Shown piece by piece: positions 22,866 through 47,699 of a DNA stretch of 64,000 bases (its first letter is position 1; every line of letters starts with the position of its first letter). Source of the DNA: Polytrichum commune (taxonomy: Eukaryota > Streptophyta > Polytrichopsida > Polytrichales > Polytrichaceae); NCBI GenBank assembly GCA_950295325.1, contig OX485805.1, forward strand, positions 3,846,501 to 3,910,500. Direction: 5' to 3'. The notes under the pieces are model-generated. The model was not told where the DNA came from and ran no database searches. It saw nothing but the letters and a program-made list of their open reading frames with translations. Both the position numbers and the translations under genes were made by a program.

Positions 22866-23020
22866 GGAGAAGAAGAAGAAGAAGAACTTCGGTCTCCGAA
22901 GGAGGCTGGAGGCTGGAGTGAGTAGAGTGTGTGTTCGTAAAACATCTTTGGCAGCGTTCTAGGGACAATGGCGTTAGATGGGAAATTACTTCACCCATTG
23001 CAGGGAGTAGACACTATGTT
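22866..23020 (-). mobile_element. 3' end fragment of the LINE family at 35148-39471
   Basis: From GGAGTGAGTAGAGTGTGTGTTCG to GGGAGTAGACACTATG this matches 35175-35275. In the large LINE that stretch is the 3' untranslated end, inside the target duplications. Read on the minus strand the fragment ends in GTTCTTCTTCTTCTTC, a short microsatellite tail like those of many LINEs. The match stops at about 23020, consistent with strong 5' truncation. Confidence 0.6.
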
Positions 23021-23388
23021 TAGGAAGGGTGGGGGGGGGGGGGAAGGGAATGGTACCCAACGCCCAGGGATGGACGTAAATTCGTCAACTACTTATTGAG
23101 CTGACAAGGATAATCATCCTGGTCTTGGAAGGAGGCCTCAAGTCAATTCCTTTGTCGAGGAGCGATTGGCGAGGCCGCATAATGAGTTGTTGGAACAAAC
23201 GAGGAGACCAAATAATTTTTTTGAAAAAAATTTCCCAAAAAACTTACTAGGAATCATTAACAATAACATGTAGTATGTAATCATCCTTAGTAGGGGGCAC
23301 TCTAGAACGCAGTAATATTTAGGGGGTAGTGTAATTTTGTTGTGTTATATATACCTTTATATGTACATATTTGTCTCTTTATTAGTTT

Positions 23389-32899: not shown

Positions 32900-35134
32900 T
32901 GAATGAAGATATGGATGAGGATATTCATCGGATATGTTTTTCATCTCAACAGAGTGTCCTACCTTGATATTATGTACTTGTGGGCAAGGTCTTGACCGTC
33001 ATTAAAAGGCAAAGGGGAGTGACCTTAACTTATTATTTTATTTTATTTTCAATTCGCTATTATTTATTTATTGACTTTGTCCCAAATTTGGTATAGAGGC
33101 ATTTGTGGGAACACCATTTGAGCAAGTATAGGGAGTGCAGAATGAAATTTAGGGTGGATGCAAAAGAACAAAGTGCATAGTAGAATAGGAGGTGAATTAT
33201 AGACCCAGAGTATAGAGGTATCGAATAGGACAAAGCCTCTCATAGCAAAGTTGCTTGTTTATTTAAGGATGTTGTAGTCTAAATTTTGCACTTTTGATTT
33301 CAATCCTAGACCCACATCTCCCCTAGGGGGATTTATTTATAGGGATTACAAGTGGTTCATGGGGTTGTTGTGTTTTGATGGTGGGCCTTGTTCATGCCTT
33401 TGCAATGAAGACATTTGGCACAATTAATGTTGGGGGCACTACACGTGGTCATCAACAGGTATGAGAGGGAATTAGTGTGACATACTAGGTATAAGAAGTG
33501 GGATCACTAAGTAGTCGCATTTGGTATACATAATCTAACTTATATTCCATGATGCATTTTAGATGTAAGTTGAAAACCTGGGCTTCCGGGGGATAAAAAG
33601 AGTGCTTAGGAGAGTATCACAAAACAAAAGCGACGGGTTGCTCGCAAAGTTATTTTCTATCTACCAAGTATTATGAGTGAGTGAAGTCATAGCAGAGTTT
33701 TGTGTGGTTTGGACTGATTTATTAAACTAGTTGCTAGACATCAATAGTGTGATTACGCTATGATTTGATCAAACATTGGTGCTATTCACTAAATTTCACA
33801 AAAAATCAAAACATTAATAATATTATGACTTAAATAAAATAGAGTATTATTTTATCATATAAATTTCAATGGTACAAGAAGGTAACTTTTGATTATTAAT
33901 GTAAAAACAATTACTAAAGCTCGCCAAATCAACAACTTCATGGATGATATGATCTAACAAATTTTGTGAGGCAAAGACAATTCATAAGAAATTATATGTA
34001 ACTTGTGTCGCACAACATATAAAAAAGGGTGTAGGTGGTTAGGGTCACCTATGTTGTGGGGCGAATTATGGACAAACTAATTATCCATTCCCTAGTTGAC
34101 ATGTTAGTGGGTGAGGGGAGCCGATGTGTGTTATAAATGGTCACTCCATTGCAATCTTCACCCATAACCACCCATGGGTTCCTACAATTTAAAACTGGGC
34201 AGCGAAACCGGAATTTTAGAAATAAAAAATAAAAATCGTTCAATTTTGGTTTGCAAGTTTCAAGATACGTTAGGCATTTATCGTCTATATTTTGGCGTAC
34301 ACGAACACTCCAATAAAAAAAAGTCACTAATGTAAACATCCCAAAATTAAATATTAAAACCCTCGTGAAAGAACATACACCAAAATGTCATTAAATATCT
34401 TGCACACCTAGTTTTAAACAAAAGAAAACTCGTCAACAAACAAACACGTGTCCAACTCCTGCACTCCCCCCAATGAACCTGTTCTACTACCAGACTCCAC
34501 CTCCCAAAGGAGGCATAATACCTTATGTGGCATCATGGTTAGCTGTGATCAACATAAGGCTAATGGGCTCACATTCATGCCAGTGTCTGGATACGGAAGT
34601 TACTTGTTATTTAGGGTTTGGCGTTTCAAAAATTTGTATTGTGAGAGCATGCCCAATTCATAGAGGGTGCAAATTTCATACCTTAGACTATAGTTACTCC
34701 GAAGTGGGTGGCTTTTCTCGTCAAGAAAGCATGCAACTAATAAGGGTGGGGGCAAGGAACGGTGGTTACAAATTTCATAAGTCCACATTTTGGTAATGGG
34801 TTTAACGTGTGAAATGAGCTTGATACAATTATTGCCTGATGTAAAACTAGGGCTTCACTATGTATCTCTAAGACTAGAGGCCCCCACAATGGGGGTAATA
34901 TATAAATAAAAATTACATCGGTTCTTTTCATTTGTACCAACGCAAATGGGAGCCCGTTCTTCCTTAACCTGCACCTGTTTTATCATGTGACATGGTAGGC
35001 GTGCTTCTGACCTTCATGGGGGTGCTGATAGTTCCAAGCGTAAAGGGTTTAACTATGCTTTTGCCTAGTAATAAATGACCATTACTTCAAGCCACTTAAG
35101 TCACTCTAAAGGCATGGAGGGAGAGCTAGATGAC
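32900..35134. other. gene-poor interval
   Basis: FCF1 upstream flank, then AT-rich DNA. No coding frame, RNA gene or clear repeat was recognised. Confidence 0.5.
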
Positions 35135-35147
35135 TTATGACCAAGGA
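35135..35147. repeat. target-site duplication of the LINE, left copy
   Basis: TTATGACCAAGGA is identical to 39472-39484, at the point where the LINE's reverse transcriptase frame is cut off. Confidence 0.9.
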
Positions 35148-38100
35148 AGAAGAACTCCAGTCCCTCTCAGGGGCCGGAGTGAATAAAGTGTCTGTTCGTA
35201 GGACATCCGTGGCCAAGCCCCAGGGCATTGGCGTTGGATGTAATACTACTTCACCCGTTAAGGGAGTAGACACTATTTTAGTAACTGGTGATGATACCAG
35301 TAAACCAAAAGGCGGGGTGTGCAGTAATTTAGGTGGGATTTTGTAAACCGGTGATGGGTTGTCTGTTTTCTATCCGTCATTTATGGATCAATATGGTGTG
35401 TGCGTATTGTATGGCGATAATATTTATTTGTTTGAATGTACTTCTTATTTGTGATGTGGGGAGTTTAAGCTTCGTGGCTAGTTCATTCATCGAGGGGATG
35501 TGAGTGGTAGCTCTGGCACCTGATGCTAATACAATAAGTGGGGCTACGTTCCAACCGCGTGCAATTATATCGTTGATGAGTGGTTGATATTTTGTTATTT
35601 TCATGGTCGTCGTTTCAGTAGAGAATCGATCAGTACAGTATGTGAATTCAATGAATTGTATAGTAGTTACCGGTGTAGGTGCGTCTGGTGGAGGGGAGTT
35701 GTATGGGTGGCCTAAGATGCATAGTATATCTGGTTTGAGCCTAGCGTTGCAATGGCAGCGCGGGGTGTGACATGTGCATGGTAGTAACCATGTTGGTACA
35801 ATATTTTCGGGGGGTAAGTCATTGCATATGCCTGCGTTCATAAGTATGTAATTTCTTGATACTTGGTTGGAGACTAAAAGTTTGCGTATTTCCCATACCG
35901 CTTTATTATGTCTATTGGTTATGAGCGCGTGGATGTGTTGTTGTTTGCATTTTAGGAGTATATGTAGCCAAGTGTCTGCTTCTAACGAATTACAAATAGG
36001 ACATGTGTGGGATGGGTAGGCAGTTCGTCCAAAGAAGAGTTGTTTCCGAGCATGCCCCATGTATTGTCTGGTGCGGAATTTGATTAAGCATGTTTTTTGT
36101 TTGTCTGTGATAATTGGGTTGTTCCAAAAGTCATTGGATAATGGTTTGTCGATATCTTTGTTATCTATCCATTTGTGTAATTGGTGTGTTTGGGTTGCTA
36201 TAAGGGTTAAGTTGTATTTTTTGTCATATTTGATGATATATTTTCCAAGGTGGTGAATGGGGCCTTTGTCTGGCGTTTCGTGCATTGAGTGCCACCAACC
36301 CTTTTGGAGGTAGTACGGCGTGGGGTGGGCATATTCATATGGTGCTATGGCATCTCTATGGTCTAGTTCACATCCCAGTTTGGCTAATCTGTCCGCTTGC
36401 TCGTTACCACTTATATTCGTGTGGGCTTGGACTTTATGTATTGTGGTGGTTTGTGTACGGAATTGTAGCATCGTAATTATACGTTCGAGTATGGTCTTGT
36501 CGGGGTGACTGTTGTGGGAGGTTGGGTGTTTTGTTTGTGTGTTTAGGAGGTATAAAACATTAAGACATTTTGTAAAGATATGTGTTGGTTCATTGCGATA
36601 TGTAGTGGTGAGGAGGCATAGGGTGTGATGTATAGCCATCAATTATGCTCTGAGTATATTTTGTAAGCCAGGGAGTCTTTTTGCAATTTGAAGGTTCTTG
36701 AAGGGGTTATATATGCCGTATCCTGCTTTCTCGCGGCGCCAGTGTTCTTGTGTGAGGGCTTTGGGTGGTATAAATGAGCCATCGGTATAATAACAAAATT
36801 GCGGGGGGAATTTGGGGGTAGGCATATTGCATGGTTCGTGATTGGGGGAATGTGGTGACTTTGGGCCAGGGGTGGTGGGGGCGGATATGTGAGTTGAGAC
36901 CAGTTCTTACAACGGTTTACTGGGGTGTTTATTGGTGTAGGTGGTGCAGTCGTGTTGAATGATGTGGGTACGTGTAATGATGTTGCAATGTTGTGCATGT
37001 CACTTGCGTAGGGTGTAGGGCCAACGGATGTGGTTTTATGATGTATACATAATATCCGAACGTCACGACTTTCTGTTCGGGGTTCAATTTGTAGTTCTGG
37101 CGGGATGGTGGGTTCATCATATGTGATGGTGTCAGCTTTAAAGTGGGTGATCACGTGTGAGTCCGGGAAAGGACCGACGTAAGGGGTGAGGTTATGATTC
37201 CAATTTGGGTCAGTTGTTATAAGTATGGTAATTGTGTTTGGGTTATGGTGGGCGACAAGTCTTGCCCAGTGGAGGGCTTGTTGGGTGTCACTTTCGGTAT
37301 GGGGATGGGCATATCCATTGCCTGTCCATTTGTGTTGGAAAGCCGTACCTATTGACCCAAAGACTTTATCGCGGGAGAATGGGGAGGAAAATTGTCTGAG
37401 TTTGGTAGGACATGTAACTGGCGAGGAGAAATATGAGTGTGTGATGTGGAAGGAGTCAAGGAGATGTTCAAGGATGACACTAGGGAGCGTATATTGTGAA
37501 AATTTAAGGGGGTCATTTTTGGGCAGTCTATATTTGTATCGTTGGTATAGCCATACCACTTCTTGTTCGAATGATTGTGTGGGGGGTTCTAGGTTGTGGG
37601 GTTGGCTTAATGCATTGTGATATTGTTCCCATAACCATTTTAATCGTTGTTCGGGAATGGTAATTATGTGGCGGCCGTCACTGTCATAGATGTGTGATAC
37701 ACCATGTTGGCTGTGGATGGTATTTTGATTACATTCTATGTCATTGTTTGGGTTACATTCGTTGATGTGGATATGGCAGAGGGGTATGACTTGTGGTGGG
37801 GGGATGTATCTGGTGTCTCTGAGTTGGTCGGCATTGAAGTGTACTTGTAGTATGTTGGTGAAGTGTTGGTTTTGTTTGTGAATATAATAGTGTGTTAAAA
37901 GTAAAATGTTATGGGTTATGGTGGATTGGTTGTTCCATGGGAACAAATCTTTTTGGGGGAGCCATTTATTGTATATGGTTTCGTTTGGGAGTATCCATTG
38001 GCATAGGTAAGATGTGTAGTTTTTCGTAATTTGGTTTTTATCTTTGTAAGTATGGGGCCGATCATTTAGTATAGAGTGTATTGAATAGTGTATGTGGTTA

Positions 38101-39471
38101 TTTTGTATATATAAGGGTGACTTTGGGTAGGCTGGGGGGGGGAGGCGTGACAGGGTGTACATTGTGTCTACTTGCTCTTGTGTTGATGTGGTGGCATTGT
38201 ATTTTGTATATATTTTTAAGGGTGTTTGGTAAGGTGTGTGTCGGGCAATTGTTGAGGCATGGGTTTTGGCACGGTGGTTCGCAAAAGAGAGTTCGAGCTA
38301 GGTCTAAGGCGGCTTGGGTTGTTTTAGTGGGCGGGTCATAATAGAGTTTGAATTCATCGTTTGTCATTAAGTGGATGCCATTGGGGTGTGTTATGTGTTT
38401 GATTTCGGTGATATTGTGGAGGAGGAGTTTATGGAGATATTTGAGGGAAATTGCGGGGAGGAGTGTTGGAATAGATTGTGCTTGGTGCATCCATTGTGTC
38501 TCTAGTGGTGTGGGAAGGAGGAGAAACTTTTCAAGTTTGCTCTTGAGGTGGATGTCACCTGTGGTTTTGAGTAGGAAAAATGTACGTGTGATCAGTGATC
38601 TAATGCAGTCCTGGCGGGATATTCGTGGTAGGTTGAGTGCCCCGCCATGCTTGGCAAGTATGTGTGTGGTTAAGCCATTGTATATTTTCCCAAGTCGTCC
38701 TGTATCGTTGAGGGCGTTAATAAGTTGCTCACCTATACAGGTGAGGTAGGCATTTTTTAGGGAGAAAGCTGCAGTGCCGAACATATCTTGTGGTAATTGG
38801 GTAACGGCATTGGACATACATTTCGGTAGTCCACATATAATTTTGTGTAGGGCAATTATTCTCTTATCCAGTTTCTTAATGGCGGGTAATGAATATGGAA
38901 CTGCATAGAAACTATAGGCAATGCCTGCGCGTATCACTGTGTCAACCATTTTTACTTTTTGTTTCATAGTTGTTGGGCAGGTGGCTAGTAATTTGCATTG
39001 TGTGATTAGTTTATTTGTGGTTATGTGTGTTTGGGTTTTCCATTGTAGTGATGGGACTAGGTTGATTCCTAGATAAACATACGGCTCGTGTTGGCTTAGG
39101 ATGGGTATAGGTTGATTTCTAAAATGTATGTTGGTGTTTTGTATGTGTGATTTGAAGGCTTGGGGGTTCAATTTCGTTTTGTTAGGACAACCCGTGATGG
39201 CACATTTCGGAATACCAAGGTCCATACCTGCCCATTCACAAAATTTGTCAATTTTATTTAGTTGATGTTGGAGGGATGGTAGATTATTGGAAATTGCGGC
39301 TAGGTCGTCTGCGTAAGCTGCAGAGCATATCGTTGTATTAGAGGTGTTAAATGTGTATCCATTGTTTCCGCACTGAAGCCAGCGAAGGAGTGGCTCAAGA
39401 AATATGATAAAGAGATATGGGCTCAGTGTGTCCCCTTGTATAGTGCCTCGTTGTATGGGTATCGGTTGGGT
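35148..39471 (-). mobile_element. 5'-truncated non-LTR retrotransposon with RT, PCIF1-like, RNase H, CCHC and RLE domains
   Basis: A 4.3-kb insertion lies between perfect 13-bp duplications. Reading 39471 to 35377 on the minus strand, the reverse transcriptase begins abruptly before QGDTLSPYLFIIFLEPLL and continues with YADDLAAISNNL and the thumb. The next frame (38162-36639) carries a region at about 37565-37037 with YFSSPVTC, FSRDKVFGSIG and ITILITTDPNW, resembling the PCIF1 cap-adenosine methyltransferase fold. Then come RNase H (YTDGS, GNEQADRLAK), a CCHC finger (CPIC..H....C, 36003-35947) and a PD-(D/E)XK-like endonuclease (KPDILCI, FIEFTYC, KITKYQPL; 35733-35488). This copy is dead. There is a frameshift at the C9 run (38134-38142), another near 36803-36822, and a TAA at 36647-36645 where RNase H needs Glu. 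The third RNase H acid is Lys (IFTKCLN). Elements with RNase H plus RLE, such as Dualen/RandI, are the nearest known class. Confidence 0.85.
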
Positions 39472-39484
39472 TTATGACCAAGGA
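39472..39484. repeat. target-site duplication of the LINE, right copy
   Basis: TTATGACCAAGGA, identical to 35135-35147. Joining the flanks gives the uninterrupted pre-insertion site. Confidence 0.9.
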
Positions 39485-41880
39485 TTGGTTGAAGGAGCTT
39501 TAATTCCTAGCTCCGTTGAGGATAAATAGCTCATGGATGGGTGGATAATGCCTCTTATCAAATCTTCTTTTTTGAGATACACATTCCATTGGTATCAGCA
39601 TGTTGCTCTTGAGGCTAGTGTTTTTTTTTGGGTGTATTTACTTATCCGTTGTGTAATGTCTAGCAAGAGATCAATGTAATTCATGTCTAAGGATTGGTGG
39701 TGACACGAGACGGGAAGGGAGAGTTGTAAGTCTTTTAGATTTTACTAAAGCAAGAATGGGATGTTGTATGAGGCGCAATGGTAGGAATTAACTGCCAATA
39801 AATATTAAGGTTTTATCTTAATTATCTCATGCAAATTTATTTTATTTTAAAAATCAATTATGACTTTGTAACCTCCGTCAAGGCAAATGGGATGCAAGAG
39901 CCAAATTGGAAGACAAGCTTACATGCGATGGTGTTAAGCGTGACCATGAAGCCCCAATGGTGCAAAAAATGTTGAGGCAAAGGTGATCACATGGTGGACA
40001 CGCTTTTGCTCTTTTAGGCTTGCACAAGAGCTTGTAAACGGGACGTTATTGGCTCTGTCCCGTATCACGGGATAGAGACATTGTGGGGATTGGCTTTGAG
40101 TGGTAATAGGTAGTGCATGTTAGAATCTAATGACTAAGGTTTGTCGAAGCTCATTGAAAGCTCAATAAAATTTTCAATTTAATATGAACAGAGCTAGTAA
40201 TTAAAATGAACAATTTAAAGATGTTAGTTTAGAACAAAGCCTCTTGTTGCAAAGCCACATTCCCTTGTTATTATTTTGTTTAGGGTTTAGGAATGGTGTG
40301 GAGCATGGATACAAACACAAATCCCGCCTTGCTTTAGTGGTTGACTCAAATTTATTCTTGATGAACTACATATTTGGGGAAGGAGTTTATGAACACAAGT
40401 GTTCATTTCTACGAGAGGAGGTGTGTAATGTGTCATACATTAATTGATACATCTACTACCTAATATATAACGGGGGACGTTAAGTACCCCCCCACGAACT
40501 TTTTTGGGGGGGGGGGAATATTCTACCAGGGGCAGCCGCTCGTCAATTTTTCTGCACCCGACCGAAAACTTCTGCCTGCCCGCCCGACTTTGAAAAAACT
40601 ATTGTACTTGCATTTTTGAAGGCTACTTGTCCACAAATCCCATATTGAGTGCACTTCATTTTCAAGGTCTCAAATCCAATATATATGTTCACTTCCATTG
40701 AGTAAATAAGCAATTGACTAGATTTCATTTTCAAAGTGAAACCGCCAATAAAGCATGTAATTAACTTGGAAGTCAAAAATATTACAAAATCCTCATTAGT
40801 ACTGAGGTTATAATTTTTGTCACTTACAATTGAAAGGGACTTTGTCATTCTAAAATGAAACTAAAATTAATGATTTATTTTTTATTTTTGAATAGTTTAA
40901 TTTAAGAAGATACCCGCCAACATGGCATCCAATATTGGTCTTGTAGGAGGTGAAGGGTAAATTTTTTTAAGTGTATCTACTCTCCGTAAATATATAATGT
41001 ACATGTTATGTTTTTCTCATACACCTATATATATCAATGGGTGTAACGACTTTGAAATAAAAAAAAACTTAGAATTTGATACCCGGCGGGTCATGGTATA
41101 AAACACATTCATAAATTCTTCAAATTTAAATACGTGATACCATGGAATTACGCAATGGCATATGTGCAAATATCAATTGTGCATCGATATCAATAGTGCA
41201 TCGATATCAATATTGAAGGATACGATATCCGTCAGGAAATGCCGTATACCCGGATACATACCCGGTCGATGCCCGGCTTCACAGGGATACCCGTACAACA
41301 TGGTGGTTAAGGGTGTTAGACTCTCTCCACCACCGAAGTGCGTGTGCCTCACTCAATCTGACACGTGTCGTACTGCTAGCCACCAAATGGCACTAACCTG
41401 TTGGGCAGACCTTGCTAAATTCAACGTGGCGATGCACGCCGACATGGCAAGCTCTGGTGCTTCGAGTTCACCGCTTTCAGGCCTTCCCCACATTTGTCAC
41501 TCTCGCTCTATGTTCAATATTGTGCTGCACAAAAAACTGTGTTGGAAGGGTGTGCATTCACCAGGCACCGGTAGGAAATATTCTCACTTGAAGCGGTTTG
41601 TCTCAATTTTGTGGCTGTAGGTTTTGTCACCGTAAACGGCAGTGGAAGGATTTGCACCGTTCTGTGCTTTGAGTGGCATGTGGAATTCTGATGCACTTGT
41701 CATATGGTGCTTGTGATCTCGTTTATGGAAGATCTTGTAATTCAGAGACTTTGCAATGCTTTAGGGGTCTTATTATCAAATTTTCAATCTTTAATTTTGC
41801 GAAGGCTATGCATAAATTAGTGGTGACAAATTGCGCATTGAAATGAGTGGTATCTTCAAGCAATTCTGGAGGGTTGATCC
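39485..41880. other. gene-poor interval with small repeats
   Basis: No gene seen. Notable are a C8 run facing a G12 run across 14 bases (40487-40516), which could fold back, a two-copy GTGCATCGATATCAATA repeat (41179-41213) and several ACCCGG motifs between 41080 and 41290. Confidence 0.5.
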
Positions 41881-41882
41881 TC

Positions 41883-42443
41883 GGGATTGTCTGTTTGTGA
41901 CCCTGAGTTCGTGTTCCTGGCGTCGCCATCACTCTTGTTTGAGGGATCTATGTGGCAGAGTTTGGTGCAATCTTTAAGGTTTTTCTGTCTGAAGAGCTAT
42001 GTGTTGCTGGAGGAATGTGAATATCGATGCATAATAAGCACTTTGTTTTTCAATGCAGAAAGAGGATACAGATTGAGAAGATTTCTCCTTCGTCGTTTGG
42101 AGTTGTGACACTGAGTGCATCTGTCTGGTAGACTGTACTCAAATCTGGAACCCTCGGTTCATACTCTATGTGTTCTTCCACTAGAGATGCTTGGGTTTGT
42201 CTATTTGAGACCCTAAGGTCATTTTTTGGGATTTATGTCTTCGCTCTTGGGGGAGTCAATGTGCGAGGGTTTGATGCCGGGGCTTGCAATCTTGGGATTT
42301 ATTTTTAGTCTGATGGGCTATGTGTTTCTGGAGGAATGTGAATATGGATTCATAAGTAATTAGCCCTTTGTATTGTCAATGCAGGAAAGGGGAGACAGGT
42401 TGAGAAGACTTCTTCGTTGCTCTTTGGAATTGGACACTAAGAG
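41883..42443 (+). repeat. tandem duplication of about 240 bp upstream of the LEA-2 gene
   Basis: Unit 1 (41883-42117) and unit 2 (42193-42443) share the same order. Each has GGNTTGTCTNTTTGNGACCCT, CTATGTG(T)TTCTGGAGGAATGTGA, a pyrimidine-rich TCAATGCAG that looks like a splice acceptor, then TTGAGAAGA.TTCT. The block ends about 95 bases before the start codon, so the gene may have alternative 5' UTR exons or a duplicated promoter/leader. Confidence 0.7.
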
Positions 42444-42535
42444 AGTGGATCTCTGTGAGGGTTTTGAAAACCTAATTTTGAACAAAGACTTCAATTTGCA
42501 TTCGTTCATAAGGGAACTGCTCTTCATTTAATCTT

Positions 42536-43524
42536 ATGACGACGTACAATCGAGACCCTGAAGACGGATACCATGACCTTGGAGAAGACACCTATTACGG
42601 CCTGCCACCATACCCTCGCACGAGAAGGCAAACATGTTGTCCATTTTCATGGCCGATAGTAACAGTAACGTCAATTTTGATCATTCTTGTAGGTTTAATT
42701 GCCACTGCCACTTTCGTGTTTTGGCCTACCCAAGCCGATGTGAAGATCACCAATTGGAAGCTCAACGGGATTAGCATCGACACCAAGGAGTCGGAATCTA
42801 TTCTCCCTGCTTACCAGTTGAATGTGAGCCTGGATTTGTTAGTGGAGATTGTGAACCCAAACTACGCGGGACTCAAATACGATACCTTGACATTGCGGAT
42901 AGATTATAGAGGAGATGAAATTGGGGAGGTGCAATCCGAAGGTGCGATGATTAAGGCTCGTAGTGCAGCGAATCACACTGCAACATTTAATTTGGAAGGA
43001 GATGACATCCTCGACAATGCGAAGGACTTGGTTGTTGACATTTCCAAGAGGAAAGTGCCACTGACGACGTACACGACCATTGATGGAGCTTTGCAGCTTT
43101 GGTTCATCAAACCGCTGATTCAGGTGGGCACCTTGCAATCTTTTGTGAAAGGATTTGTTATTTTCCGAGTATAAGGATTACAATGGGTTGGTGCATTTTT
43201 GATAAATAATCTGTTTGTCAGAAGCCAATATCATTCAAGAGTTGCAAGTTCCATCAGTAACATAACTATAAGGTCAATGTATGTTTCCCAGCTTTGAATG
43301 TGGCACCCATGTGATCTGTTGTTTTCAAAAAACAGTACATGTAGGTGCTCTTTTATTGGTGTTGTATTGTCCCAAAAATTGAACTTTTGCTTTGCCTGGA
43401 GACTGAATTCTGGGTTTCTTTTTTAACTCGGTTTGTTGGATATTTTCTGCAGGTGACATTGGCTTGTGAGCTTGTGGTGGATCCAAAGGACAAGGTTGTG
43501 CTAGAACAAAAGTGTGGAATCTAA
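42536..43524 (+). CDS. LEA-2 domain, NHL (NDR1/HIN1-like) membrane protein, 2 exons, 219 aa
   Basis: Exon 1 is 42536-43123 (196 codons, phase 0, donor CAG/GTGGGC). Exon 2 is 43453-43524, after TTTTCTGCAG, and adds VTLACELVVDPKDKVVLEQK and a short end. Without splicing the frame would run on for only 16 unrelated residues, whereas the spliced tail matches the way these proteins end. The protein has a short Tyr/Pro-rich cytosolic N-terminus with paired cysteines after RRQ, one membrane segment (about residues 39-62) and a LEA-2 domain containing VEIVNPNYAGLKYD, the NPN motif of NHL proteins. Members sit in the plasma membrane and are often tied to stress or pathogen responses. The exact role here is unknown. 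The gene appears intact. Confidence 0.88.
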
Positions 43525-43596
43525 GCAAAGTGTGACATCTACATTTAGTAAGGATGGAATGACCTATCCCACAAACATTGTACATACAAATACTAT

Positions 43597-43619
43597 CCCC
43601 CCCCCCCCCCCCCCCCCCC
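43597..43619. repeat. poly-C tract, 23 bases
   Basis: A run of C just downstream of the LEA-2 stop codon, probably in its 3' UTR. The length may be unreliable in sequencing. Confidence 0.9.
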
Positions 43620-43779
43620 TCTATTCAGTCTGTTTTTTAAGGGTGGTGAAGGAGCTTTCCAGGGTTTTGCCAGGCGATGTTCTTGTGGAGACTCTATGTA
43701 TAAAAGGTTCATGGAAAATCAAATCACACTTCGAATTCCATGTACCTAGTCACCTACTACCTGTGACTTAAGTTATGAC

Positions 43780-44540
43780 TTATTCGCAACAGGTGACTAT
43801 GTTATGTCATGTGTTTGTGAATTCCATGTGAAAGGTGGTCTTGATGTATTTGTTTAGTAAGTGGTCTGTTTCTTGCTGCCATCATTGACTGTTAAAATGA
43901 TGCCTCTGTGTGAGTTTTTAAAGGATGTACTTTGGCAATTATGAAGCTCAGTCCGCAGCTTCACCCTCTAACTTGTCAGCCTCTAACTTGTCAGCTGCTA
44001 ACATGTATGTTTTCATATGTTATAGATCTGTTCTTCTGGTATGACATTTAGTGACCAAAAGGGAAGCATTGAAGCGATATTTTGTCAAAACTGAACTTTA
44101 AAAACAATTCTGCCTCCAACATCTTTATAGTTGTAATTGAGGAGACTGACTTTGTGGTTGCTGAATGATTTCCATCGTATCGGATTCTTACACTGCACGG
44201 CAAGTCTTTGTTTGGGAGTTCCTACAAATCAGGATACGTAGCACACTGTGCCCTTTCATCTGTTCATTGATATAAAAAAAAATAGACATGCTGCGCTTGA
44301 ATGTTGTATCATCCAAAATTTGGCTCTTTCGCATGTAAGATGTGCATACTAAGCTAAACCTCACCTTTTATTCAGGTCTGCACCATACGAGTGGACCCTC
44401 TATCAAAATCTGATGCTCAGAATTAAGGTTAATCAACCCACATACTAAACTCCCTACTCTTGCGTTGTGTTGAATCGGCTACTGTAGGAGCGACAGTCTC
44501 CTGTACATAATTGCCATCATCATACAGATTTCCCAATGTT
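43780..44540. other. intergenic space between convergent LEA-2 and P450 genes
   Basis: The two genes point towards each other. The space shows a small CTCTAACTTGTCAGC duplication near 43965-43995 but no gene. Confidence 0.5.
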
Positions 44541-44571: not shown

Positions 44572-47500
44572 TCAGTATAAATCTGCCCTCAAGCGGGGTT
44601 TGGCAATCACTGAGAGCGGGTTCTTCCTTGGCATTGTAATTCCAAAGATCTCGCTCATGTCCAAAGTATCTGGATCCTGACCTCCGGGCAAGGAGAATTC
44701 AAAAGCTTGTGCGAGACGAGCCAGCCCAATTTGCACAAAAAGAGTTCCCAATGGCATCCCAGGGCACTGACGCCGGCCTGCTCCGAATGGAATGAGCTGG
44801 AAGTAGTTGCCCTTCATGTCGATTTCTGGATTCTCAATAAACCGTTCGGGGTCGAACTGTAAAGGGTTAGGCCAGTACTTGGGGTCCCTGTGGATCGCAT
44901 ACAGGTTCACCATCACCTGTGAGTGGACGGGAATGTCGTATCCCCATACGGTGGTAGGCTCAATGCATTCATGGGGCAGGTTCAGAGGTGCAGGTGGGTA
45001 GAGACGGAACACCTCCTTCACCACAGCGTTCAGGTAAGGTAAGTTGTTTAGATCGGTCTCGTCCACTCGTCGGTCCTTGCCCACTACTGTGTCGAGCTCG
45101 GCGTGGAGTTTCTTCATGCAGTCCGGGTGGCGGACGAGCTCGGCGATGGCCCACTCCACCGTGTTGGAGGAGGTGTCTGTGCCGGCCAGAAGCATGTCCT
45201 GCGCAACATCACATGGCCAAACCATAGTTGTTGGAAGAAATTATTTCTCAGAGAATGAAGCAGTGTGTAATGCGAGAGCATGATTCGGTAGTAATCATCG
45301 TCAAGACCCTAGTGACCACTTGTATGCACTGTTGTTAATTCGCAGACCAAGTTTCGGTCGACATTCGGCTGGAGTATTTCTGCAGTAGCCTGTTTGACAT
45401 ACTTGGTTCACATTTTGGAGATTCTGCTGTACTCTCAGGTTAAGGCCAATTCCGACAACATGGCTACTTCTCAGAACAACAAACTGCAGAAATTCATCAG
45501 GAATCTGCTTCACTCGACAGGAAATCCTCCAGAATTGACATGGAAATCAGGTATTAGAGCAGAGTTCACTGTGCTAATCCCAATCATCTATATAAGATTG
45601 ATCGCTTTAAATGCAGATGATATCCTTCTTTTCTTTTTCCTCGACGCATTAGAAATTCAATCTCATACTCATGGGGTGAAATTAAAATGTTACAGGGAGC
45701 GATGGATATGTCATACCTGGATTGTTCCTTTAATGGCATCGTCATCAAGGTTGCCCTTGCCGTCCTCAGATGGCTGGCGCAGCAGCACATCCACAAAGTC
45801 CTCACGCTTCTCCTCTCCGGATTTGGTGTCCGACCCTGCTTTCTTCACCTCCAGAAACTCTTGGAGGAACTGGTCGATCTCTCCCTTCACCTTCTTCATG
45901 TAGTTGACGTAGCCGGAAGCGTAGGTGATCCACTTGAGCCAGGGGATGAAGTCACCCACAATCACTGTGGACGACACCTTGAAGAGGGTGAAGATTAGCG
46001 ACTTGAAGCGGTGAGCCTCCATTTGCCCTGCGACATCAGTTCCAAAGAACCTGCAAAAAAAACATGAAAGTCAAATCAGAACAAGATGAAAAGCACCTAC
46101 GTTAAGCACAATATTCAAAGAGAAGAGATGACTGTGAGGTTGTCACCGAAGTATTAAATTATGTTGTTGCTAACTTAATCGTCCCACATGGTTGGTTTAC
46201 AATATTCAGTTCACCCGGTGGACATTCCCGCTGTCATTGGGTGGCCCATAGGTAGTAGGCTGCACCGAAAATCAAGTGCTATGAAGACGAAATCTCTTTT
46301 ACTATCAGAATTCCGGTCTTCTTCGCAACGGGCTTAACTTAACACACTTCGAGTTCTCATCTGTTCAGGTTAAGGCCTTGGCTTTAAGCCTCACCTTCAC
46401 AATTTCAATATCTGCAATGTACTATCATAAAATCACTTATCATGTTCCTCTTCTTTAACCCAGGTAAATCCTTCTCCCTCACTCCCATTCACTTCAAATT
46501 CAAGCCGAAGAAATTACATCAAGATTCGGCATCCTGCACTTCTATTCTGCACATCCTACATTTAGTATAAAGCTCTCAAGTCTTTCTTCCAATTCAACCA
46601 TCAAGTTGATATTAGCCTCCATCTCACGGAGGCTACTGCACTCCACTTAAGGGAATTAGCCTGTTTGACACCATCTTGATGTACTTTCAGTCCCATAAGT
46701 CTTTTGACTTCCCGGATTATAAAATCAATTTCATCCCAGAATCTTCCAATCCGATCTGAGATTCAAGGACAAGATTTTGCATCCAACACTTTTATTCAAT
46801 AAGCAGAATGCACCCAACTAGAAGACTACAGAATATAATTAACTTAGTAACTCATGTTGTAATAAATGATGGAAATGCACCTACCGGGGGGTGAAACAAC
46901 AAGGGGAAAAGAAAACAGAAGAAGTTTGAGAATGTGACCTTCGGTTGAGCAACATGCGGGTGATGTTGTTGGTGGCGAGATGGCCGAGCTTCACCGTAAG
47001 CTTGACAGCCTTACCATCCAGGGAGTCCTCGTAGATACTCTTGACCATCTGGTTGAACTCCTCAGTCCGGGGAGGGCGGAAGGAATCGAGACGCTTCTGG
47101 GTGAAAAGCTCCAGAGTGCAGATCTTGCGCATATGTCTCCAATGAGGAGCGTAGGGAGCCCATACGATGTTTCTGTAGTTGTTGGTGAAGATCTTCCCGG
47201 AGATGGAAGTGGGCCTGCCTGCGAACACCTTGTCCTGGACCTTGATGAACTCCTGGGCGGCGTCAGGGGATGACACCACCACCATCCCATTCACGCCCAG
47301 CTTCAGGTACATGATGGGACCGTGGATCTTGGACATGTGCCATAAACTCTGGTGCACGTTCTCGCCCATCTGGTGCATGTTGCCTATGATAGGTAGCCGG
47401 CGAGGGCCCGGTGGCAGCTTCATGTGTCGGGTGCTACTCAGCAAACTTCGCAACAACGAGATTGTTATGAGCGTCACTGCCACCGCCACTAGAATTCGGC

Positions 47501-47588
47501 TTGTTGTCCACCACGCTGGGTCCCTTAGCTGCGACAAGAACGAGCTCGCGAGGTCTGAGGCATTGCCCCACTTGGAAGCTATCTCCAT
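44572..47588 (-). CDS. cytochrome P450, CYP71 clan (A-type), 3 exons, 536 aa
   Basis: Exons are 47588-46939, 46050-45717 and 45198-44572, totalling 1611 nt, with GT..AG introns of 888 and 518 bases and matching phases. The N-terminus has a membrane anchor (about residues 20-45, ILVAVAVTLITISLL) and the proline hinge LPPGPRRLPIIGN. Further motifs are WRHMRK (helix C), AGTDTSSNT (helix I oxygen-binding), EVFR (helix K), PERF and FGAGRRQCPG with the haem cysteine. It would be an ER-bound monooxygenase using NADPH-P450 reductase; the substrate is unknown. The general look (DAPY/WAPY-type region, A-type haem loop) is that of phenylpropanoid- or terpenoid-type CYP71-clan enzymes, but I cannot assign a family. 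The start at 47588 gives a standard anchor length; an upstream in-frame ATG at 47666 is possible. All key residues are present. Confidence 0.93.
46590..46735 (+). mobile_element. LINE tail fragment (family L1-tail), copy 3, inside P450 intron 1
   Basis: The sequence from about TCAAGTTGATATTAGCCTCC to AAAATCAATTTCAT matches the last 120 bases of the remnant ending at 24654 (QVDISLYLTEGTALL). It is antisense to the P450 and away from the splice sites. Confidence 0.65.
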
Positions 47589-47699
47589 GGCTGGGAGTTC
47601 GGATTGAACCACCTGGAATCCTATACCTGAATCTGCAAACGTCCACCAGTGCAAAGCTTTAGCCACTGAGTTATGTATCCAAATTACTGCTCACTGGAA

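What the first reader, a model, noticed from the sequence alone, without database searches (positions are those of the whole stretch)
37037..37565. A PCIF1-like (cap-adenosine methyltransferase-like) domain embedded in a LINE
Between reverse transcriptase and RNase H the element encodes a block with YFSSPVTC, FSRDKVFGSIG, GNGYAHPH and ITILITTDPNW. The order and spacing resemble the core of PCIF1/CAPAM, the enzyme that methylates cap-adjacent adenosine. PCIF1's catalytic NPPF position appears here as AHPH, so catalysis by this version is doubtful. Seen: the motifs. Known: the PCIF1 pattern. Inferred: that a LINE lineage captured such a domain, perhaps to act on the 5' end of its RNA or to bind it.
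Basis: partly seen in the sequence, partly recalled or inferred. Interest (0 to 1): 0.85.

Follow-up and report, generated by a model that had tools for sequence, protein, structure and literature searches.

The report
LINE carrying a PCIF1-like methyltransferase domain
A jumping gene in what looks like a land-plant genome carries, between its reverse transcriptase and its RNase H, a recognisable relative of the enzyme that methylates the first base of messenger RNAs, but with the catalytic motif replaced, so it may bind RNA ends rather than modify them.

Summary
On the minus strand, 35148-39471 is one LINE insertion, 5'-truncated inside the reverse transcriptase and bounded by a 13-bp target-site duplication. 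It reads RT - PCIF1-like block - RNase H - CCHC - restriction-like endonuclease motifs. The block matches Pfam PF12237, the CAPAM/PCIF1 methyltransferase, at E 2e-11, 44.2 bits over a cut-off of 31.1. It lies inside the duplicated target site, so it moved with the element and is not a nested host gene. The catalytic NPPF reads HPHT in this copy. The copy has two frame breaks and a stop but little general decay (about 0.6%, 95% upper bound about 3%), so four changes inside that motif are unlikely to be post-insertion damage. Most likely: a captured PCIF1-type fold that no longer methylates and acts as an RNA or cap-end binding module of the retrotransposition protein; the function is inferred. 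No second copy was seen: the own-genome search did not complete, and scans of viral and prokaryotic collections gave no relative. Single-sequence structure prediction failed. Methyltransferase capture by retrotransposons is known; a PCIF1 capture by a LINE did not turn up in ten literature searches.

The parts
35148..39471 (-). One LINE insertion, 5'-truncated inside the RT; 4,324 bp
   Evidence: Bounded by a 13-bp direct repeat; the only two copies in the 64 kb
39472..39484 (-). Target-site duplication, 5' copy
   Evidence: 13/13 identical to the 3' copy; 2 of 2000 shuffles and 0 of 1500 random window pairs (pairs under 600 bp apart skipped, counted as misses) reach 13
35135..35147 (-). Target-site duplication, 3' copy
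38098..39471 (-). C-terminal part of the reverse transcriptase (RGTIQGD 39450-39430, YADD 39315-39304) and the region after it
   Evidence: Pfam RVT_1 6.4e-12; best PDB match R2 protein 2.1e-10, L1 ORF2p 0.0024; motif positions
36639..38297 (-). Open frame of 552 codons holding the PCIF1-like block; it overlaps the RT frame, so one frame break is placed within 38098-38297
37194..37619 (-). PCIF1/CAPAM-like methyltransferase core (Pfam PF12237, profile 7-146 of 176)
   Evidence: aa 227-368 of the ORF, E 8.8e-11, above the curated cut-off; 2e-11 for a 261-aa piece
37296..37307 (-). HPHT at the place of PCIF1's catalytic NPPF
   Evidence: Same placement in the alignments; position
36366..36789 (-). 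RNase H domain (rough limits): TDGS 36786-36775, His and Asp in VQAHTNISGNEQAD 36432-36391; a stop (36643-36645) at the place where the catalytic Glu is expected, TKC where TDS is usual; a second frame break just upstream of TDGS
   Evidence: Pfam RNase_H 6.8e-06 for aa 16-91 of the 35377-36642 ORF; motifs; frames
35947..36003 (-). CCHC zinc knuckle CPICNSLEADTWLHILLKC
35545..35736 (-). Restriction-like endonuclease motifs: KPD 35736-35728, E in FIEFTY 35655-35638, KITKY (KX2KY) 35601-35587, RGWNV 35559-35545
   Evidence: 0 of 20,000 residue shuffles keep the CCHC-PD-D/E-KX2KY series; KX2KY signature from PMC5678591 (passage)
35148..35379 (-). 3' untranslated end, finishing in a short TTC-rich tail, no poly(A)
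   Evidence: Sequence, boundary

Best explanation
Shown: a LINE with restriction-like-endonuclease motifs encodes, in its polymerase region between reverse transcriptase and RNase H, a domain homologous to the methyltransferase core of PCIF1/CAPAM, and the domain was copied to this site in the same insertion as its neighbours. Shown for this copy: the catalytic NPPF reads HPHT while many framework residues remain (QxxLP, FxSPxxC, FGSxG). Inferred: the change is older than this copy's decay, so the source element already carried a non-methylating version. Inferred, most likely mechanism: the domain works as an RNA-binding module, by ancestry one that fits the capped 5' end of a transcript, keeping the element's protein on its own full-length RNA or positioning the end of the template before RNase H removes it.
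For: PF12237 at 2e-11 and 8.8e-11. PF12237 is a CAPAM-like methyltransferase, not a WW domain (PMC7641849, passage). PCIF1 chains are the only two PDB matches at E up to 10 for the 176-aa block, at 0.047 and 0.075, and the top match of two for the whole ORF, at 0.0017. 29 invariant columns in the three-sequence alignment, 31-32% identity. TSD around the whole unit. The block's base composition is that of the rest of the element, not of the two flanks. HPHT needs at least four base changes from NPPF by the genetic code; with decay at most about 3% (95% bound from one stop in 4,086 sites) the chance of four or more in those 12 bp is about 5e-4 or less. Replacing NPPF (APPA, SPPG, NAAF) is used to inactivate human PCIF1 (PMC10544176, PMC12896973, passages). 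Drosophila PCIF1, with F to H in NPPF and no m6Am detected (PMC9479742, passage), is called catalytic-dead yet regulates gene expression and fertility (title in reference lists and a citing passage only). A methyltransferase-inactive human PCIF1 keeps one regulatory role (PMC12896973, abstract and passages).
Against: Only one copy was seen. An RNase H active-site position is also changed (TKC where TDS is usual), so changes at active sites are not confined to the captured domain; that weakens a specific adaptation. The decay argument assumes uniform decay and rests on a single stop. PDB matches by sequence are marginal: the best single stretch has i-Evalue 0.26. No direct evidence of cap or RNA binding; the match to the N-terminal (helical) part of PCIF1 is only suggestive (E 2.3, an unrelated protein ranks first). 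In PCIF1's own case CTD binding lies in the WW domain, which is not found here. No usable fold model.
Confidence: 0.6

Rival explanations
1. The family encodes an active adenosine N6-methyltransferase that modifies the element's own RNA cap or its cDNA, and HPHT is damage in this copy.
For: The copy is dead: two frame breaks and a stop, and an RNase H active-site position is also changed. Methyltransferases under purifying selection in retrotransposons have precedent (PMC5890265, passages).
Against: At least four changes in 12 bp against a background of about 0.6% (upper bound about 3%) give P about 5e-4 or less; the two TSD copies are still identical, which fits a young insertion.
Confidence: 0.2
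2. The domain is a degenerate passenger, kept only as a structural spacer between RT and RNase H, without RNA-binding function.
For: Catalytic residues lost; the 227 residues before the block match no Pfam family above its cut-off, nor does the stretch after it in the whole-ORF scan.
Against: The frame stays open over 552 codons and framework motifs of the fold are kept, more than a spacer needs.
Confidence: 0.15
3. A host PCIF1 gene or pseudogene lies here by nesting or by chance next to LINE pieces, and the element does not own it.
For: Only one copy could be seen.
Against: TSD encloses RT, block, RNase H and RLE; the block has the element's base composition (strong skews also occur elsewhere in the window, so this alone would not prove it); the open frame runs on through it on the same strand with RT before and RNase H after.
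Confidence: 0.04
4. Chance resemblance.
For: Single-sequence PDB matches are marginal (E 0.0017 to 0.075).
Against: Pfam E 2e-11, above the curated cut-off; the same element's other two ORFs do not hit it.
Confidence: 0.01

Closest known systems
PCIF1/CAPAM (cap-specific adenosine N6-methyltransferase), Pfam PF12237
   Same: Methyltransferase-core sequence: QxxLP, FxSPxxC, FGSxG, G-A-P around the catalytic loop, a conserved P.W after the next strand
   Different: NPPF reads HPHT; no WW domain in the part present; helical part missing or much reduced; part of a retrotransposon protein
Drosophila PCIF1 (catalytic-dead PCIF1)
   Same: A PCIF1 relative with a substituted NPPF (PMC9479742, passage)
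   Different: A host PCIF1; one residue of the motif changed, three here
Dualen/RandI LINEs (APE and RLE endonucleases, RNase H)
   Same: RLE and RNase H in one LINE (PMC4640811 section 9; PMC3636483 passage)
   Different: The APE end cannot be seen here because of the 5' truncation; no PCIF1 domain is mentioned in the passages that I read
SymbioLINE-Dnmt, SymbioDIRS-Dnmt3, KnitGypsy-Dnmt3 and DIRS with Dam-like methylase
   Same: Retrotransposons that captured a methyltransferase domain (PMC5890265, passages)
   Different: Cytosine DNMT or Dam-like adenine methylase families; in SymbioLINE the domain is mostly in an upstream ORF, here it sits between RT and RNase H
R2 LINEs
   Same: Best solved-structure relative of the RT fragment (2.1e-10); CCHC then RLE with KX2KY
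   Different: R2 has no RNase H or PCIF1-like domain (recalled)

Membership tests
PCIF1/CAPAM enzymes | Methyltransferase core homologous to PF12237 | tested here: met
   E 2e-11, 44.2 bits over a cut-off of 31.1
PCIF1/CAPAM enzymes | Catalytic NPPF | tested here: not met
   HPHT in this copy, same placement in the alignments
PCIF1/CAPAM enzymes | N-terminal WW domain | tested here: not met
   No Pfam WW-domain family other than the misnamed PF12237 at E up to 1 in the three ORFs; the 5' part of the element is absent, so a WW domain further upstream is untestable
PCIF1/CAPAM enzymes | Helical domain before the methyltransferase core | tested here: inconclusive
   Weak match of aa 221-253 to chain positions 38-67 of 6irx_A (i-Evalue 64); for a 63-aa piece PCIF1 ranks second of the two sequences listed at E up to 10, E 2.3, behind an unrelated chain at 0.38
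PCIF1/CAPAM enzymes | m6Am activity on capped RNA | not testable with these tools
   Needs an assay
LINE (non-LTR retrotransposon) | RT, target-site duplication, 5' truncation, no LTRs | tested here: met
   RVT_1; 13-bp TSD and truncation inside RT; none of the 7 direct-repeat families of 14 bp or more in 33000-44000 pairs the two ends
RLE-type LINE | CCHC knuckle followed by PD-(D/E)XK variant with KX2KY | tested here: met
   By motif only (signature); no Pfam match at E up to 0.01 for a 307-aa C-terminal piece and no relevant PDB match
Dualen/RandI | Both APE and RLE | not testable with these tools
   APE would lie in the truncated 5' part
Dualen/RandI | RT phylogeny within the clade | not tested
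   No reference RT set at hand; RT here is a fragment
Utopia | Insertion in U2 snRNA genes; RNase H (oomycete families) upstream of RT | tested here: not met
   No Rfam match at E up to 1 in 33000-41000; RNase H is downstream of RT

The most novel reading that the evidence does not exclude
A LINE lineage converted a captured cap methyltransferase into a non-catalytic reader of capped 5' ends, placed between reverse transcriptase and RNase H, so that the enzyme recognises full-length capped template RNA (self-selection) and coordinates template-end copying with RNA removal: a cap-reading polymerase in a retrotransposon.
Probability: 0.25. Interest if true: 0.88.

Novelty: new variant of a known kind. 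Interest (0 to 1): 0.66.

Why it matters
How LINE proteins pick their own RNA and how they deal with its capped 5' end are open questions (as I recall the field). A cap-methyltransferase relative built into the polymerase region gives a concrete, testable handle on both. It would also add a cap-methyltransferase fold to the methyltransferases captured by retrotransposons, which in the paper whose passages I read are cytosine DNMTs and Dam-like methylases (PMC5890265), and it would be a further case of a PCIF1 relative without its catalytic motif.

Tried and rejected
Other copies: the own-genome protein search was sent 16 times in the same form and never answered. Within the window there is no second coding copy (tblastn of the three ORFs). 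Relatives elsewhere: six viral-contig scans and two genome-contig scans confirmed none. Stretches that matched a pattern but failed tblastn: 2, 98 (69), 1 (72), 98 (107), 62 (70), 14 (73); searches matched nothing. tblastn: phages none with the 552-aa ORF, plasmids none with the RNase H ORF. These collections are viral or prokaryotic, so this says little about plants.

Other libraries: NCBIfam gave nothing for the block's ORF or the RNase H ORF and a sub-cut-off group II intron RT match for the RT ORF (23.9 bits, cut-off 300); PHROGs gave only RNase H (0.00021); the PDB gave only weak RNase H matches for that ORF (E 1.6 and up).

Structure: one AlphaFold job on a single sequence gave mean pLDDT 33.9; no fold search was run on it because it would mean nothing. 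The second job was not used.

Considered and dropped: Utopia clade (RNase H on the other side of RT, no U2 match); WW-domain reading of PF12237 (PMC7641849 calls the Pfam name a misannotation); GATase_5 (best E 0.038), TAL_effector (best 0.045) and Polo_box_4 (0.21), all below their cut-offs, and Rap-GAP_dimer in the RNase H ORF (0.037, below cut-off), taken as chance; the strongly skewed windows at 60.1-60.5 kb, where a GA microsatellite lies at about 60.4-60.6 kb, and at 27.1-28.1 kb, where the ORF listing showed nothing element-like to my eye.

Literature: ten searches, of which only 7, 10, 17, 18, 25, 26 and 60 bear on methyltransferases in retrotransposons; I saw the listings. None listed a PCIF1-LINE fusion; PCIF1 with reverse transcriptase and non-LTR gave one paper, on m6A of L1 RNA by its abstract. 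Passages also seen without use for the argument: PMC5348765, PMC8868631 (44: PCIF1 found only in eukaryotes, traced to their last common ancestor), PMC6338049, PMC9100520 (67: catalytic component of plant m6Am called unknown in 2022), PMC9778586 (96, a reference-list entry only). Not held and so unread: Iyer et al. 2016 on adenine methylation in eukaryotes (DOI recalled), two DOIs tried for Dualen-related papers (recalled), Franco et al. 2023 (68), Boulias 2019 (93), Sendinc 2019 (95) and one recalled id (94). The Iyer survey could already mention such a fusion; I could not check, and Repbase is not available here.

Full report
What is there. On the minus strand the window holds one LINE insertion, 35148-39471. 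Its ends are set by a 13-bp direct repeat, TCCTTGGTCATAA, at 39472-39484 and 35135-35147; these are the only two occurrences in the 64 kb. 2 of 2000 base shuffles of the 5' zone reach such a match, and 0 of 1500 random pairs of window places do, pairs under 600 bp apart being skipped and counted as misses. The copy is truncated at its 5' end inside the reverse transcriptase, starting just before the RGTIQGD motif. It ends in a TTC-rich tail without poly(A).

Domain order. Reading 5' to 3': RT tail with YADD (RVT_1 6.4e-12), whose best solved relatives are R2 proteins at 2.1e-10, with L1 ORF2p at 0.0024; an open frame of 552 codons with the PCIF1-like block; RNase H (6.8e-06; its TDGS motif lies in an 87-codon frame that gave no Pfam match alone at E up to 0.01); a CCHC knuckle; and PD...E...KX2KY motifs. 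KX2KY is described for the restriction-like endonuclease of LINEs in PMC5678591 (passage). The endonuclease rests on motifs only: a 307-aa C-terminal piece had no Pfam match at E up to 0.01, and the PDB gave two unrelated chains at 0.27 and 0.76; 0 of 20,000 residue shuffles kept the whole motif series.

The block. Pfam PF12237 is matched at 8.8e-11 for the whole ORF and 2e-11 for a 261-aa piece, 44.2 bits against a cut-off of 31.1. The family is named PCIF1_WW, but PMC7641849 states that it is a CAPAM-like methyltransferase and not a WW domain (passage). In the PDB the 176-aa block finds zebrafish (6irv) and human (6irx) PCIF1 and nothing else at E up to 10, at a marginal 0.047 and 0.075 (species from a figure legend of PMC10544176). 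The whole ORF finds human PCIF1 at 0.0017, its best single stretch at i-Evalue 0.26, and one unrelated chain at 1.6. A MAFFT alignment with those two fragments has 29 invariant columns and 31-32% identity. The other two ORFs of the element do not match the family at E up to 1.

It belongs to the element. The TSD encloses it together with RT, RNase H and endonuclease motifs, so they arrived in one event. Its base composition (minus strand C 0.325, G 0.131, GC skew -0.42) is that of the other element segments (-0.31 to -0.58) and not of the two flanks (-0.07, -0.09). Skew alone is not unique: among 588 windows outside the element the extremes are +0.47 and -0.47. That the same arrangement exists in other copies is inference: the own-genome search was sent 16 times and never answered.

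The catalytic motif. NPPF of PCIF1 aligns with HPHT (37307-37296) in the alignments. Human PCIF1 is inactivated with APPA, SPPG or NAAF (PMC10544176 and PMC12896973, passages). Drosophila PCIF1 has F to H in the motif and no m6Am is detected there; honey bee has F to Y, which the authors think unlikely to explain that m6Am is absent there too (PMC9479742, passages). [quoted passage not shown]

Is HPHT just decay? The copy has two frame breaks (within 38098-38297 and just upstream of the RNase H TDGS) and one stop. One stop over 4,086 sites gives a decay estimate of about 0.6% with a 95% upper bound near 2.9% (transition weight 2). NPPF to HPHT needs at least four base changes in 12 bp by the genetic code; at 3% decay the chance of four or more there is 5e-4, at 1% 8e-6. 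The identical TSD copies fit a young insertion. So HPHT was probably already present in the source element. Against this: RNase H also shows an unusual residue (TKC where TDS is usual, by recalled motif), so uniform decay may be too simple a model, or the source element also had a changed RNase H.

A possible remnant of PCIF1's helical part. aa 221-253 resemble chain positions 38-67 of human PCIF1 (i-Evalue 64 in the whole-ORF search of 177,635 sequences); a 63-aa query lists only two sequences at E up to 10, PCIF1 being the second at 2.3 behind an unrelated protein at 0.38. Given the homology next door this is a lead, no more. That these positions lie in the helical domain is recalled from the domain order, not tested.

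Host. Other ORFs of the window match PGG and ankyrin, LEA_2 and cytochrome P450 families, which points to a land plant; that is inference from family distribution as recalled.

Mechanism. The most likely reading is a captured methyltransferase-core fold that no longer methylates and serves as an RNA, perhaps cap-end, binding module in the polymerase region, helping to hold the element's own RNA or to position its 5' end. Only homology, position, mobility with the element and the motif change in this copy are shown; binding is inferred from ancestry.

Novelty. Methyltransferase capture by retrotransposons is established for DNMTs in LINE, DIRS and Gypsy elements and for Dam-like methylases in DIRS (PMC5890265, passages). 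In ten searches of the library I saw no PCIF1-LINE fusion, but the likeliest earlier survey (Iyer et al. 2016, recalled) is not held, and Repbase is not available here. I therefore call it a new variant of a known kind.

Noticed in passing
window 22911-23026 (minus strand): A 116-bp stretch 77.6% identical to the LINE's 3' untranslated end (about 35172-35284), also followed by a TTC-rich tail; probably the 3' end of a related, heavily truncated LINE or a SINE that shares its tail.
   Followed up: partly
window 36565-36579 (minus strand): The RNase H of this copy has TKC where TDS is usual, besides the stop where the catalytic Glu is expected, so two catalytic positions are changed; it may have been inactive already in the source element (motif recalled).
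   Followed up: partly
window 37512-37700 (minus strand): A short stretch before the methyltransferase core resembles an N-terminal part of the solved PCIF1 chain, which would mean that more than the core was captured.
   Followed up: partly
window 44572-47690 (minus strand): Two cytochrome P450 pieces (N-terminal part 46881-47690, C-terminal part 44572-45240) that look like exons of one gene.
   Followed up: no
window 41163-41212: Short 17-bp tandem repeat outside the insertion.
   Followed up: no
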